A DNA stretch of 64,000 nucleotides from Pannonibacter sp. SL95 (GTDB taxonomy: Bacteria; Pseudomonadota; Alphaproteobacteria; Rhizobiales; Stappiaceae): contig NZ_JAPPRC010000003.1 of assembly GCF_026672425.1 (NCBI RefSeq), positions 1,160,501 to 1,224,500 on the forward strand, read 5' to 3'. Shown here piece by piece: positions 4,293 to 64,000 of this stretch. Each line of letters opens with the position of its first letter. Position 1 is the stretch's first letter. The position numbers were made by a program, and so were the translations under genes. The notes beneath the pieces are model-generated. The model searched no databases. It had not been told where the DNA came from and saw only the letters and a list, made by a program, of their open reading frames with translations.

Positions 4293-6500
<2,208 letters not shown>

Positions 6501-22879: not shown

Positions 22880-22918
22880 GGCAAAAGGAAGTGGAGGCTT
22901 CTGTTGCCAGGTGCCTCC
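22880..22918 (-). terminator. Probable tmRNA terminator
   Basis: On the minus strand GGAGGC and GCCTCC (22918-22913 and 22898-22893) form a stem around a 14-base loop, followed by ACTTCCTTTT. The run of T is short, so this may instead be the last structural element of the RNA. Confidence 0.5.
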
Positions 22919-23215
22919 GGACCCCGCCTGCCGGTGCTACCCGTCAGGACTTTAGGTGGACAACCCGCACCGCATTACGCGGCGAGAGCGACGTCCTGAG
23001 CATAGTTGTCATTGGCAACTACAGATTTGGTCCGATATCGGTGGTACCATGCCGAGCGAAAGCACAGTCTTTACACCCTCGTCGATCCTGTTTCGCCCCC
23101 GCCGAAACTCACCCGAAAGGGTGGGCTTGGGTGGAGGCGCCGGGTACCGCCCCCGGGTCCGAAAGGCTTATTCCACTGACAATTTATCGCCATAGCCGGC
23201 AAGCCGGCACCGCCA
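22893..23215 (-). ncRNA. ssrA: tmRNA gene, circularly permuted (two-piece) alphaproteobacterial type
   Basis: On the minus strand a 13-codon tag frame (22975-23016) reads ANDNYAQDVALAA followed by TAA, a typical trans-translation tag. The coding piece starts at 23100 with GGGGGCG, which pairs perfectly with CGCCTCC (23139-23133) of the upstream acceptor piece; the third pair is G-U, the alanine identity element. Between them, 23101-23129 is a short hairpin-forming spacer expected to be removed. After CGCCTCC the genome reads ACCCA, so an exact CCA end is not encoded at the expected place. The 5' limit of the acceptor piece is approximate. Confidence 0.9.
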
Positions 23216-23416
23216 ATATAGAAGCTGGTTGCCCCGATTGAAAGGGGGGCATGAAATCGACTGTGGAGCGACTCGCCGGAACCCTTGATAATGGCGGGCC
23301 AAGGGAGGGACCGCGAATTGAAACCGCGCTGTTCCGCCTGTATGCCACGAGCTTCGATCCGGCCCGGCACGCTCTGGAGCCGCGCTTCTGCCACCCGTTG
23401 AGAGACGAGGCCAGCC

Positions 23417-61165: not shown

Positions 61166-61766
61166 TCTCCTTCTAAAGATGTGAAGAGCGCCGATTGGCG
61201 CTAGGGCAGGGTGGCGAAAGCCGCCTTTTTTGTTGTCTGCGCTCTCGCTTTCGCTTGATGTTTTGGCGAGGTGAAGCGCAGCGGCCAGATACCGGCTGAT
61301 CTGTGCATCGGGGCACCCACCTGCGGAGCCATTGTCTCGCCGCTCTTTCGCGGTCCCGGTCTGAGAAGTCGCTCCTGCAACCTCCATACAACTAGATCTG
61401 ATCCGGTCAGGACAGGTTTCCTGAGCTGCGCCAAGGTTTGCCTTGCGGGGTGATTGTTATTCTGGGTTGTGTCGAGCGTGTGGCGTGCTGGTTGTATTTG
61501 AGTTGCATTTCCGCAATCAAGGGTAGATTTCCGCCGTCGGTCTGTCAGTTCTTTCCAGTCAGATGATGCATGTAGGTCACCCACAGGAACGACTGCTTCC
61601 GGCCATTCAAACACAGCGTTATTCTAAAGAAAAACATGCCTAACAAATTCCTAACGTATCGCATATTTAAATAAAAAATCTTCGGATCTAATGTCACGAA
61701 GGAATATCTTCAGCGTCTCTGAGAGCACAAGGCCGTAAAAGAGCCAAATGCGCAGGGAGACAGTCC
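61166..61766. other. Gap tRNA-Lys to sigma factor gene, AT-rich near its right end
   Basis: Apart from the tRNA terminator I see no gene or RNA. From about 61610 to 61700 the composition becomes A/T-rich, contrasting with flanking genes. The sigma factor's promoter should lie there; no clear consensus is visible. Confidence 0.5.
61210..61232 (+). terminator. Terminator after tRNA-Lys
   Basis: GGTGGC-GAAA-GCCGCC, a six-base-pair stem closed by a GAAA tetraloop, followed by TTTTTTG, 45 bases after the tRNA. Confidence 0.85.
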
Positions 61767-62369
61767 GTGGACGAGATCAGGAAGCGCGCGATGTTGGAAA
61801 CGATGCCTGCCGGTGGCCTCTGGTCGAGCTGGATTGACGATGGCCCGGTGCTGCGGCGCAGGGCAATGCGGTTGACCCGAGGCGATCGGGAAGAGGCGGA
61901 AGACCTGCTCTCGTCGACGCTGATCAAGGCGATCAGTCACGTGGAGCGGACCGACACGCAGGTTCGTGAGCCGCGCGCATTTCTGCTGTTCGCCCTGAAG
62001 AACGAATACATCTCGAGGTTGCGGCGGCGGAATTCGGAGCGGCAAGTCCGCGATTTCTCGGCCGACATCTACGAGGACAGCACGGCAGACATGGCCGACA
62101 GCCGCCCGAGCCAGGAACATCTTCTCTGGCAGCAGGAAGCGCTCGCCAGGGTGATGCGGCTGATCGACCGGTTGCCGGAGGAGCACCAGAGGATCTTCGA
62201 GATGCGCTTCTGCGATGAGCTGGGCTACCGCGAGATCGCTGCTGACCTGGGTATTTCGGAGGCCCTGGCGCGCAAGCGGGTACAGAACCTGCGGCAGATG
62301 CTGCGAGCAGGTCTCGAACATGCGGAAGAGCCGAAGCTGATCCCGCCGCCGTCACGGCGGAAAGGGTGA
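61767..62369 (+). CDS. ECF-type RNA polymerase sigma factor
   Basis: A 200-residue sigma-70 family protein with only regions 2 and 4. Region 2 reads LRRRAMRLTRGDREEAEDLLSSTLIKAI and FLLFALKNEYISRLRRR. Region 4 reads IDRLPEEHQRIFEMRFCDELGYREIAADLGISEALARKRVQNLRQML, ending in a basic tail. The start is GTG 61767; no anti-sigma gene is visible on either side. The RebB-family gene begins 48 bases downstream on the same strand, so a role in switching on that locus is likely but inferred. Confidence 0.9.
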   Translation: MDEIRKRAMLETMPAGGLWSSWIDDGPVLRRRAMRLTRGDREEAEDLLSSTLIKAISHVERTDTQVREPRAFLLFALKNEYISRLRRRNSERQVRDFSADIYEDSTADMADSRPSQEHLLWQQEALARVMRLIDRLPEEHQRIFEMRFCDELGYREIAADLGISEALARKRVQNLRQMLRAGLEHAEEPKLIPPPSRRKG

Positions 62370-62417
62370 AACGTCCAGAGGGATACGGCAATCGCGAGCT
62401 GAACAGGAAAATCTACC

Positions 62418-62642
62418 ATGGTCGATCTTGTAAACGCACAAATCACCGATGCAGTCACCCAGACCAATGTGAAGGTTGTGGCGGAGGCGCCGGCCCAGGC
62501 GATCGCCAGTCTGTATCAGGTCAGCAGCCATGCGACCGGTCTTTCGATCCAGAACGCCGTGCACAGCCAGCAGGCCATGAACCAGATCATGACGGCGGTC
62601 GTGTCGAAAGCAGTGCAGCTGATCATGGACATCGGAGAGTAG
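62418..62642 (+). CDS. rebB: RebB family R-body protein
   Basis: A 74-residue protein closely matching the RebB/killing-trait domain: VNAQITDAVTQTNVKVVAEAP, then IASLYQVSSHATGLSIQNAVHSQQAMNQIM. Reb proteins polymerise into R-bodies, coiled protein ribbons that unroll suddenly and, in Caedibacter, are linked to killing of sensitive paramecia. It has no signal peptide or membrane segment. AGGAAA precedes the ATG. It is flanked by the sigma factor gene and by a second RebB-like gene. Confidence 0.88.
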   Translation: MVDLVNAQITDAVTQTNVKVVAEAPAQAIASLYQVSSHATGLSIQNAVHSQQAMNQIMTAVVSKAVQLIMDIGE

Positions 62643-62768
62643 CGGCTGCGCGCCACGGGCCGGAGCTATTTCCCGGCCGGCGTGACGGAAGCGCCCCTCG
62701 TCCTGTTGCGGTAACCCGCCGGCGGTCAGTGGACCTGTCGCCGGGATCGATTCCACGGGAGACGGATC

Positions 62769-63776
62769 ATGTGGCTGGCGTCAGGACTCCAGCGTCTGAA
62801 GTCATTCTTTGACGGACCGCCGCAAGCCGCTCCAGCTGGTGCGGAGCACGGTGCGGATTGGGCCGACGGCGGAAACGATGGCTGGACTGCCGATTGGGTG
62901 CCCGACCGGCCGCGGCGGCGCCTGACTGCTGATGGTCTTGCCGGAGCGCCGAACGGAACGCGCGCCACGGCACATGTCATGGAAGGGGCCTCGCGTGGGG
63001 CGAGCGTCAGCCGTCCGCGCCCGCAAACCGACGCGCCCACCACAAGCAACCGGGAAACCCGCGACAAACAGGGAAGGTCTGACATGGACATTCAGGGTCA
63101 AGGCAGCCTGGCCGCCGAAGGCAGGATGAACGGAGCGGCTGCACATGGTGCATTCGCCGCCCTGTCGGAAGACAACGACGCGCCGGCGCGACCGCAGAGG
63201 ATGACCGGCGAGGACATGGTGCGCCGCAGTCCTGCCCCGAGCCGGAGTGCTGAACCGGCCATCGCCCTTGCGGCAGCACCAGGCGGTGGTGGCAAGGGCA
63301 CGGGCGGGCTTGGTGCCGGTATCGGCGGCAATGGTCTTGGTGACGGGGGCGGCGATGGTACGGGCGATGATCCTCCGGCGCCTCCCGCGCCTCCTGCCCC
63401 TCCCGCGCCATCGGGTGGCAGTACCTCGGCACTGAACCAGCAGGTGGTTCAGGCCGTCCAGTTTTCCAATACGGAGAACCTTGCCTATGGCATGAAGATG
63501 GCCGTAACGCCGCCGGAAATCATGGTGGGTCAGACCACCGGGCAGGCGGTGCAGGATGCAGCCAGTTACATGAACGCCATCATGCAGATCGCGGTCGCAG
63601 CCCAGGCCATTGCGATCAAGAAGGCCGCGCAGGGTCCTGTTGGTGAAGCCGAGGCGGTCCCGCTGCTGGCTGAAATCCAGAGCATGGTGACCGCCGCCGT
63701 GCAGGTCTACGGGTCCGTGAGCACGACGGCCGGCCAGTCGGCCCAGACGATCTTCAGCGATCTCAAGACACCCTGA
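62769..63776 (+). CDS. Long low-complexity protein with C-terminal RebB-like domain
   Basis: A 335-residue protein. Residues 1-215 are mostly disordered in appearance: charged and Ala/Arg-rich, then a Gly-rich block (GGGGKGTGGLGAGIGGNG, about 172-190) and a PPAPPAPPAPPAP run near 203-214. Residues 218-335 resemble RebB (LNQQVVQAVQFSNTENLAYG, then GQAVQDAASYMNAIMQIAVA). ATG 62769 has GGAG 7 bases upstream; ATG 63084 has GGAAGG 6 bases upstream and would give a 230-residue form. Perhaps a capping or membrane-contacting R-body subunit, but this is inference. Confidence 0.75.
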   Translation: MWLASGLQRLKSFFDGPPQAAPAGAEHGADWADGGNDGWTADWVPDRPRRRLTADGLAGAPNGTRATAHVMEGASRGASVSRPRPQTDAPTTSNRETRDKQGRSDMDIQGQGSLAAEGRMNGAAAHGAFAALSEDNDAPARPQRMTGEDMVRRSPAPSRSAEPAIALAAAPGGGGKGTGGLGAGIGGNGLGDGGGDGTGDDPPAPPAPPAPPAPSGGSTSALNQQVVQAVQFSNTENLAYGMKMAVTPPEIMVGQTTGQAVQDAASYMNAIMQIAVAAQAIAIKKAAQGPVGEAEAVPLLAEIQSMVTAAVQVYGSVSTTAGQSAQTIFSDLKTP

Positions 63777-63865
63777 CCGTCTCATCGGTCCGGACACGAC
63801 CAGACCCTTGCGAAGCAGTCTTCGCCGGGCAGGGACCACGCATGCCCGAAAAAGGAGCGGTGATC

Positions 63866-64000
63866 ATGGAACTCGAAATCAATGTCATCTGTACCGAACT
63901 GGACAGCCTGCTGGCTGACTTTCTGACCAGCTGGGCCGAGGATCTGGGCAAGGAGCGCGACGCTGCCGAGCTTGAACGGCTCTACTGCATGTATCCGCGC
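63866..64000 (+). CDS. Start of an unidentified gene, cut by the window edge
   Basis: ATG 63866 is 8 bases after AAGGAG and opens a frame that runs off the window (45 codons seen). The visible part is acidic and helical (MELEINVICTELDSLLADFL, SWAEDLGKERDAAELERLY). No family is recognised from this fragment. It follows the RebB-like gene by 89 bases on the same strand and probably belongs to the same unit. Confidence 0.6.
   Translation, partial: MELEINVICTELDSLLADFLTSWAEDLGKERDAAELERLYCMYPR

What the first reader, a model, noticed from the sequence alone, without database searches (positions are those of the whole stretch)
61767..64000. Probable R-body (reb) locus with its own sigma factor
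An ECF-type sigma factor is followed closely by a clear RebB-family protein, a long protein ending in a RebB-like domain, and an unfinished gene, all on one strand. RebB-family proteins form R-bodies, retractable protein ribbons known from Caedibacter and predicted in various proteobacteria. Free-living hosts for this system are little studied. The sigma factor without a visible anti-sigma suggests a dedicated on-switch.
Basis: partly seen in the sequence, partly recalled or inferred. Interest (0 to 1): 0.88.

Follow-up and report, generated by a model that had tools for sequence, protein, structure and literature searches.

The report
R-body locus with dedicated sigma factor
A Pannonibacter bacterium carries what looks like a full gene cluster for R-bodies (coiled protein ribbons that can spring open), and the cluster appears to be switched on by its own sigma factor through a promoter-like sequence that also precedes the same genes in related bacteria; the gene arrangement is already known, the shared promoter looks new.

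Summary
The window (a Pannonibacter, Stappiaceae) ends inside a reb locus: ECF sigma, RebB protein, long Reb-like protein, unfinished ORF4; beyond the window follow ORF5 and two more RebB genes. The kind is known: the same sigma-reb-hypotheticals-reb-reb order was published for Labrenzia (Roseibium) alexandrii, same family, with R-bodies seen by TEM (PMC3764935). Sigma-reb association was surveyed in 2013 (PMC3583457); FecI2 is required for reb promoter activity in P. aeruginosa (PMC8322103).

What I add: a promoter-like element, TTCAC-N16-CGTC with at most one mismatch, precedes reb1 in 30 of 30 sigma-bearing family loci, the first late reb in 26 of 28, and sigma itself in 17 of 30; eleven other spacers reach at most 8 in any class. 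Two family reb loci without the sigma lack it. It recurs in a second family and in Ruegeria pomeroyi. Among 101 relatives, sigma and the long protein hit the same 30 genomes, all reb-positive. No anti-sigma was found in the proteins tested. Best reading: a dedicated, sometimes self-amplifying sigma switch for R-bodies.

The parts
61465..61507 (.). GGTTGY-type repeats upstream of the sigma gene, candidate regulator sites (GGTTGT at 61465 and 61490, GTTGC at 61502)
   Evidence: GGTTGY/RCAACC 7.7 per kb in the 400 bases upstream of sigma versus 1.5 per kb in the rest of 30 family loci, which are not independent; positions. Lead only.
61693..61717 (+). promoter-like site 1, GTCAC-N16-CGTC, before the sigma gene (auto-activation predicted)
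   Evidence: a site before sigma in 17 of 30 family loci
61767..62369 (+). ECF-type sigma factor, 200 aa, GTG start
   Evidence: homologue in 30 of 33 loci examined
62351..62375 (+). promoter-like site 2, GTCAC-N16-CGTC, overlapping the end of the sigma gene, before reb1
   Evidence: a site before reb1 in 30 of 30 family loci
62418..62642 (+). reb1, RebB family, 74 aa
   Evidence: PF11747 E 3.4e-27; single helix predicted, mean pLDDT 85.5, pTM 0.42
62769..63776 (+). ORF3, 335 aa, long Pro/Gly-rich N-terminus and conserved helical C-terminus; fits the description of the S4/RapA secondary Reb group
   Evidence: group S4 as described in PMC13430693
63866..64000 (+). ORF4, first 45 codons; the gene ends at 64393 beyond the window (L005:3867-4394, 175 aa)
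   Evidence: no family match. Beyond the window on the same strand: ORF5 (L005:4363-5256), promoter-like site 3 (L005:5308-5332), reb2 (5384-5704), site 4 (5796-5820), reb3 (5875-6204)

Best explanation
The region is a reb (R-body) locus of a Pannonibacter. It encodes three primary Reb proteins, a long secondary Reb-like protein (ORF3) and two accessory proteins (ORF4, ORF5). The ECF sigma at the head directs RNA polymerase to NTCAC-N16-CGTC promoters before its own gene, reb1, reb2 and reb3. Some input (unknown here; a Crp-type regulator in relatives) raises sigma; with no anti-sigma found in the locus, and with sigma predicted to feed its own promoter, the cell goes from off to fully on and fills with Reb proteins that polymerise into a coiled ribbon. 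Shown by computation: gene identities, synteny, co-occurrence, the promoter-like element. Inferred: that this sigma reads that element, self-amplification, ribbon assembly, and use against predators or hosts.
For: Three PF11747 genes over the cut-off in the genome, all in this locus. Order sigma-reb1-ORF3-ORF4-ORF5-rebs in 28 of 33 loci examined. Sigma (E <= 1e-12) and ORF3 (E <= 1e-5) profiles hit the same 30 of 101 relatives, all reb-positive. TTCAC-N16-CGTC exact: 54 on the reb strand in 30 loci against 0-2 at spacers 11-15 and 17-22. With at most one mismatch, within 200 bases before the gene: reb1 30/30, first late reb 26/28, sigma 17/30, later rebs 9/51. Four sites in the own locus, reached in 0 of 200 shuffles; 13 pattern matches in the whole genome, 4 of them here. 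In family f56, 19 TCAC-N16-CGTC on the reb strand versus at most 3 at other spacings; by position 14 of the 19 lie within 112 bases before a sigma or reb frame. In R. pomeroyi, sites before reb1, the ORF4 homologue and reb2. Controls: no site near the reb genes of the two family loci that lack the sigma (L043, L046), and none in six reb stretches of five genomes without it. R-bodies seen by TEM in L. alexandrii with the same arrangement (PMC3764935); FecI2 needed for PrebP1 in P. aeruginosa (PMC8322103); in R. centenum the sigma RC1_2001 beside the R-body genes, and those genes, fall strongly without CgrA (PMC4681086).
Against: No expression or microscopy for this organism. 13 of 30 family loci have no site before sigma, so self-activation is not general. 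The window's two sites alone are not striking: 6 of 100 shuffles reach two. Genome-wide the pattern is rarer than its reversed control, 13 versus 29. One-mismatch pairs are common over whole loci: 115 at N16 but also 18-63 at other spacers on the reb strand and 35-111 on the other strand, so they count only close before genes. G116 has sigma about 17 kb from reb and only one site; G374 has a sigma homologue (E 5.5e-29), no RebB and no N16 site. The zero in the six outside stretches is weak evidence, since other spacers there give 0-4. ORF3's kinship with Reb is weak, and no ORF5 homologue was detected in R. pomeroyi. Loci within one family are not independent, and the sigma-element link is correlational.
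Confidence: 0.8

Rival explanations
1. The reb genes are real, but the sigma is a neighbour that does not control them; a Crp/PraR-type regulator acting at ordinary promoters does, and TCAC-N16-CGTC is a site for another factor.
For: A. caulinodans reb is run by PraR and RebR, and the term 'sigma factor' does not occur in that paper's main text (PMC5527310). TCACA resembles a Crp half-site (recalled). GGTTGY repeats are enriched upstream of sigma.
Against: The element has the layout of an ECF promoter: two short boxes, fixed spacer, and 52 of 83 assigned sites end 38-56 bases before the annotated start (many starts are the longest frame). It is not palindromic, and it goes with the sigma: present in three groups that have it, absent near the reb genes of two family loci and six outside stretches without it. 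No sigma hit in 68 reb-negative relatives.
Confidence: 0.12
2. The Reb proteins no longer make ribbons; they are relics or serve as another cytoplasmic polymer.
For: No experiment seen for this genus (listing: two papers hold both words, one of them PMC3764935); RebB presence alone does not prove ribbons.
Against: Frames intact, key motifs kept (QITD/MVTD, KVVAE/KVVGE, NAV, QQ), promoter-like sites and synteny kept in the family, and a family member makes R-bodies.
Confidence: 0.06
3. The locus is a mobile or phage-derived cassette rather than a stable chromosomal trait.
For: It lies next to a tRNA-Lys; a PHROG family of unknown function matches reb1 at E 6.4e-17; some reb genes are on plasmids (17 of 72,556 records).
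Against: ilvB lies in the fetched stretch of 22 of 33 loci and trhO in 28 of 33; no match in 50,697 phage records and none confirmed in viral contigs.
Confidence: 0.04

Closest known systems
Labrenzia (Roseibium) alexandrii DFL-11 reb cluster (ladfl_0000084-91), PMC3764935
   Same: ECF sigma, RebB, hypothetical genes, two RebB genes; same family Stappiaceae; R-bodies seen by TEM (passages read)
   Different: Four hypothetical genes there, three here; no promoter element in the passages read
Raymann 2013 Group 2 synteny (HP2.1, HP2.2, sigma HP2.3, Crp-like HP2.4), PMC3583457
   Same: reb genes with a sigma factor and hypothetical proteins of reb-bearing taxa (Results, parts 1 and 2 of 3 read)
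P. aeruginosa PA14 reb cluster (fecI2, rcgA, rapA, rebP1P2, rebD), PMC8322103
   Same: sigma factor required for reb promoter activity; an extra R-body-associated protein (passages read)
   Different: Also needs the regulator RcgA; no regulator other than the sigma is adjacent here; FecI2 and RapA sequences were not compared
R. pomeroyi DSS-3 megaplasmid reb locus (SPO_RS21815-21855)
   Same: sigma (83 bits to the family model), RebB, ORF3-like (76 bits) and ORF4-like (25 bits) genes, two RebB genes, and three TCAC-N16-CGTC sites
   Different: Crp/Fnr gene directly upstream, an extra 463-aa protein, no site before sigma, no detected ORF5 homologue
R. centenum R-body operon and sigma RC1_2001, PMC4340629 and PMC4681086
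   Same: sigma gene beside an R-body operon, both strongly down without CgrA (passages read)
   Different: Under a cGMP-dependent cyst programme; sequences not compared

Membership tests
RebB / R-body structural proteins (PF11747) | match above the curated cut-off | tested here: met
   three genes at 94-96 bits against 24; reb1 also
RebB / R-body structural proteins (PF11747) | diagnostic motifs QITD, KxxxD/E, NAV, QQ(Q) (PMC13430693) | tested here: met
   visible in reb1 and, with MVTD for QITD, in reb2 and reb3
RebB / R-body structural proteins (PF11747) | three or more reb genes in one cluster (criterion used for counting taxa in PMC13430693) | tested here: met
RebB / R-body structural proteins (PF11747) | assembly into insoluble coiled ribbons | not testable with these tools
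   needs electron microscopy
ECF sigma factors | sigma regions 2 and 4, no region 3 between them | tested here: met
   Sigma70_r2 at 27-89 and Sigma70_r4_2 at 128-178, no region-3 family among the eight listed
ECF sigma factors | adjacent anti-sigma (usual, not obligatory; recalled) | tested here: not met
   no anti-sigma family for ORF3-5 of the window locus or the homologues tested; strongly hydrophobic stretch in 1 of 28 ORF4 and 0 of 28 ORF5 homologues. Genes upstream of sigma in relatives were not annotated
Raymann Group 2 reb synteny | sigma factor HP2.3 at the reb locus (frequent) | tested here: met
   a sigma gene is there; identity with the HP2.3 subfamily itself was not compared
Raymann Group 2 reb synteny | Crp-like HP2.4 (frequent, not obligatory) at the locus | tested here: not met
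   upstream tRNA-Lys then ilvB, downstream trhO
Raymann Group 2 reb synteny | HP2.1 and HP2.2 present | not tested
   their sequences were not at hand; ORF3-ORF5 are candidates
Secondary Reb group S4 / RapA | extended N-terminus rich in proline and charged residues, weak Reb similarity | tested here: met
   alignment A1, low-confidence N-terminus and three C-terminal helices in the model, weak hhalign match
Secondary Reb group S4 / RapA | sequence homology to paRebB/RapA | not tested
   RapA sequence not fetched

The most novel reading that the evidence does not exclude
A stand-alone ECF sigma without anti-sigma and its cognate NTCAC-N16-CGTC promoters form one portable regulatory module for R-bodies across alphaproteobacterial families; where the sigma also feeds its own promoter, R-body production becomes an all-or-none, bistable decision, so that a few cells arm themselves while the rest do not.
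Probability: 0.35. Interest if true: 0.55.

Novelty: new member of a known kind. Interest (0 to 1): 0.38.

Why it matters
Why and when free-living bacteria make R-bodies is open. A predicted promoter that can be read in any genome turns 'there is a sigma nearby' into a testable regulon: it says which genes belong to the system (reb1, reb2, reb3, the sigma itself, and in R. pomeroyi the ORF4 homologue), predicts positive feedback in some species and not in others, and gives easy reporters to find the inducing condition. It also marks ORF3, ORF4 and ORF5 as conserved candidate assembly or cargo factors.

Tried and rejected
Solved structures: none for the Reb or ORF3 profiles at E up to 1. ORF4 and ORF5 against Reb by profile: no relation. 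ORF4/ORF5 as anti-sigma: no such domain, little hydrophobic sequence. Phage origin: no match in phage records or viral contigs, though one PHROG family matches Reb. Sigma-70-like promoters in the locus: 0 found, 0.7 expected. Structured RNA in L005 900-6600: only the tRNA. A fourth PF11747 hit at G000:C3:168912 (E 0.137, below cut-off) was fetched (L006) but not pursued. A wider regulon in the own genome: of nine other pattern matches, my context script reported five; one (L156) stands 62 bases before an open frame but also inside other frames, the other four lie inside or at the edge of frames; the four minus-strand matches were not resolved. PraR sites: GGTTGY repeats upstream of sigma share a half-site with CAAC-N5-GTTG; the palindrome itself was not searched. 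Not done: empty-site comparison in reb-negative relatives; comparison with FecI2, RapA or RC1_2001 sequences; trees.

Full report
What is there. The window lies at G000:C3:1160501-1224500 of a 5.04 Mb, six-contig genome. Its closest named relative in the sigma search is Pannonibacter carbonis, 99% identical in the sigma protein, a Stappiaceae. Reading past the window end (L005; window position = L005 position + 59999) extends the locus: sigma 61767-62369, reb1 62418-62642, ORF3 62769-63776, ORF4 63866-64393, then ORF5 (L005:4363-5256), reb2 (5384-5704) and reb3 (5875-6204), all on one strand, followed by a gene I call trhO (recalled name). Three RebB matches at E 5.3e-27 to 2.1e-26 are over the cut-off in the genome and all are here; a fourth, E 0.137, is below it.

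How common. RebB is found in 33 of 101 relatives (own genome included; 32 over the cut-off) and in 10 of 398 Pseudomonadota genomes. Of 33 loci examined (own plus 32 fetched; 32 from the family, L067 from another family of the order), 28 keep the full order sigma-reb1-ORF3-ORF4-ORF5-late rebs; two (L055, L060) have sigma-reb1-ORF3 on the strand opposite to a late reb, two (L043, L046) have reb only, and L067, the sub-cut-off hit, has none. ORF4/ORF5 were sought only on the sigma strand in that count.

Co-occurrence. The sigma profile (E <= 1e-12) and the ORF3 profile (E <= 1e-5) each hit 30 of 101 relatives, the same 30, all reb-positive; the three reb-positive genomes without them are G013, G018 and G081. 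In the 398-genome sample ORF3 hits 5, all reb-positive. The sigma profile hits 11 at E <= 1e-12; six are at E < 1e-28, and of these five are reb-positive while G374 is not. Only the best few candidates per genome were scored in that sample (seven for sigma, six for ORF3), so weak members could be missed. Sigma relatives are thus not strictly confined to reb genomes.

The promoter-like element. Reading the regions before sigma, reb1 and the late rebs showed TTCAC followed by CGTC. Counting all spacings in the 30 sigma-bearing family loci gave 54 exact pairs at 16 bases on the reb strand, at most 5 at any other spacing from 5 to 39, and at most 10 on the other strand; 49 of the 54 were assigned to late1 (22), reb1 (19) or sigma (8), five lay elsewhere. 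With one mismatch allowed, a site lies within 200 bases before reb1 in 30/30, the first late reb in 26/28, sigma in 17/30 and later rebs in 9/51; the eleven other spacers between 11 and 22 give 0-2, 0-8, 0-4 and 0-2. Over whole loci one-mismatch pairs are common (115 at N16; 18-63 at other spacers on the reb strand, 35-111 on the other strand; 31 of the N16 ones outside the assigned places), so only their position before genes is informative. Of 83 assigned sites 52 end 38-56 bases before the annotated start. Two loci (L045, L064) without a first-late-reb site at N16 seem to show a pair with 17 bases, by eye.

Specificity. The own locus has four sites in L005 (0 of 200 shuffles reach four); the two inside the window alone are reached by 6 of 100 shuffles. 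The genome has 13 matches to KTCACR-N14-RCGTC, four of them here, while the reversed control pattern has 29: the element is not enriched genome-wide, it is concentrated here. The two family loci with reb but no sigma (L043, L046) have no N16 site near their reb genes, even with one mismatch. In three genomes of family f56 (sigma, seven or eight rebs, ORF3) TCAC-N16-CGTC occurs 19 times on the reb strand against at most 3 at other spacings; comparing positions, 14 of the 19 lie within 112 bases before a sigma or reb frame. In R. pomeroyi DSS-3 the three N16 sites lie before reb1, the ORF4 homologue and reb2. Six reb stretches from five genomes without this sigma have none, although other spacers there give only 0-4. 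G116, whose sigma is about 17 kb away, has one.

Model. The sigma recognises NTCAC-N16-CGTC and drives the locus, and in Pannonibacter also itself. No anti-sigma was found among the proteins tested. The input is unknown. In R. pomeroyi a Crp/Fnr gene sits just upstream. In R. centenum CgrA (a cGMP receptor, Crp-type by recall) binds between RC1_2000 and the sigma gene RC1_2001, and in its absence RC1_2001 changes by log2 -6.6 and the R-body genes by -5.4 to -9.4 according to the table, though the text speaks of about 12-fold for RC1_2001 (passages of PMC4681086). GGTTGY repeats upstream of the family's sigma genes (7.7 versus 1.5 per kb) are a candidate site for the local input. In P. aeruginosa rebP1 expression is stochastic, 0.26% of cells, and needs FecI2 and RcgA (PMC8322103 passages), which fits a switch of this kind but was not compared by sequence.

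The proteins. reb1 is predicted as one long helix (mean pLDDT 85.5, pTM 0.42). ORF3 has a low-confidence Pro/Gly-rich front and three C-terminal helices (mean pLDDT 58, pTM 0.29). Its kinship with Reb is weak: hhalign probability 14%, P 0.0019 against 0.41-0.91 for controls; no RebB hit among 20 homologues; its model gives 18 bits to R. pomeroyi RebB in a search of nine proteins but did not recruit the Reb proteins of these loci at E 1e-4. It fits the description of group S4, which includes RapA, a protein found with R-bodies in P. aeruginosa (PMC13430693 Results read, Discussion passages; PMC8322103 passages). ORF4 and ORF5 of the window locus match no Pfam, NCBIfam (one sub-threshold hit for ORF5) or PHROG family.

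Novelty. Already in print: widespread reb genes, the sigma association (PMC3583457, Results in part; also noted in PMC13430693), the matching arrangement with observed R-bodies in the same family (PMC3764935 passages), and sigma dependence in Pseudomonas. I saw no report of this promoter element: paper searches (listings) and passages of PMC4362757 on the FecI2 regulon did not show one, but figures and supplements were not seen and many journals are not held. The finding is a new member of a known kind with a new regulatory prediction.

Noticed in passing
L135:7822-9102, L136:7552-8751, L137:7724-9055: In a second alphaproteobacterial family (f56) the reb-linked sigma frame is 399-443 aa, with an N-terminal extension of roughly 200-250 residues, Pro-rich, with blocks conserved between three species; a possible built-in control domain.
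   Followed up: partly
L140:6212-7048 (G374): A close relative of the reb sigma (E 5.5e-29) in a genome with no RebB match and no N16 site nearby; neighbours look metabolic by eye.
   Followed up: partly
L160:8152-9543 (R. pomeroyi DSS-3): A 463-aa protein without Pfam match sits between the ORF3-like and ORF4-like genes; L040 has a 1.5 kb gap at the same place.
   Followed up: no
L160:5530-6240: Crp/Fnr regulator directly upstream of the reb sigma in R. pomeroyi, absent beside the window locus.
   Followed up: partly
L055, L060: In two relatives sigma-reb1-ORF3 is inverted relative to a late reb gene and trhO, several kb apart: a rearranged locus.
   Followed up: no
L137:9194-9694: A 166-aa frame weakly matching the ORF5 model (E 1e-4) lies just upstream of the sigma in one f56 genome.
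   Followed up: no
window 61465-61507: GGTTGY direct repeats upstream of sigma, enriched in the family; they share a half-site with the PraR consensus CAAC-N5-GTTG known to control reb in Azorhizobium.
   Followed up: partly
window 22884-23224: tmRNA gene, minus strand, tag ANDNYAQDVALAA.
   Followed up: no
window 62418-62642: PHROG family phrog_32040 (unknown function) matches Reb at E 6.4e-17, although no phage record or viral contig here did.
   Followed up: partly
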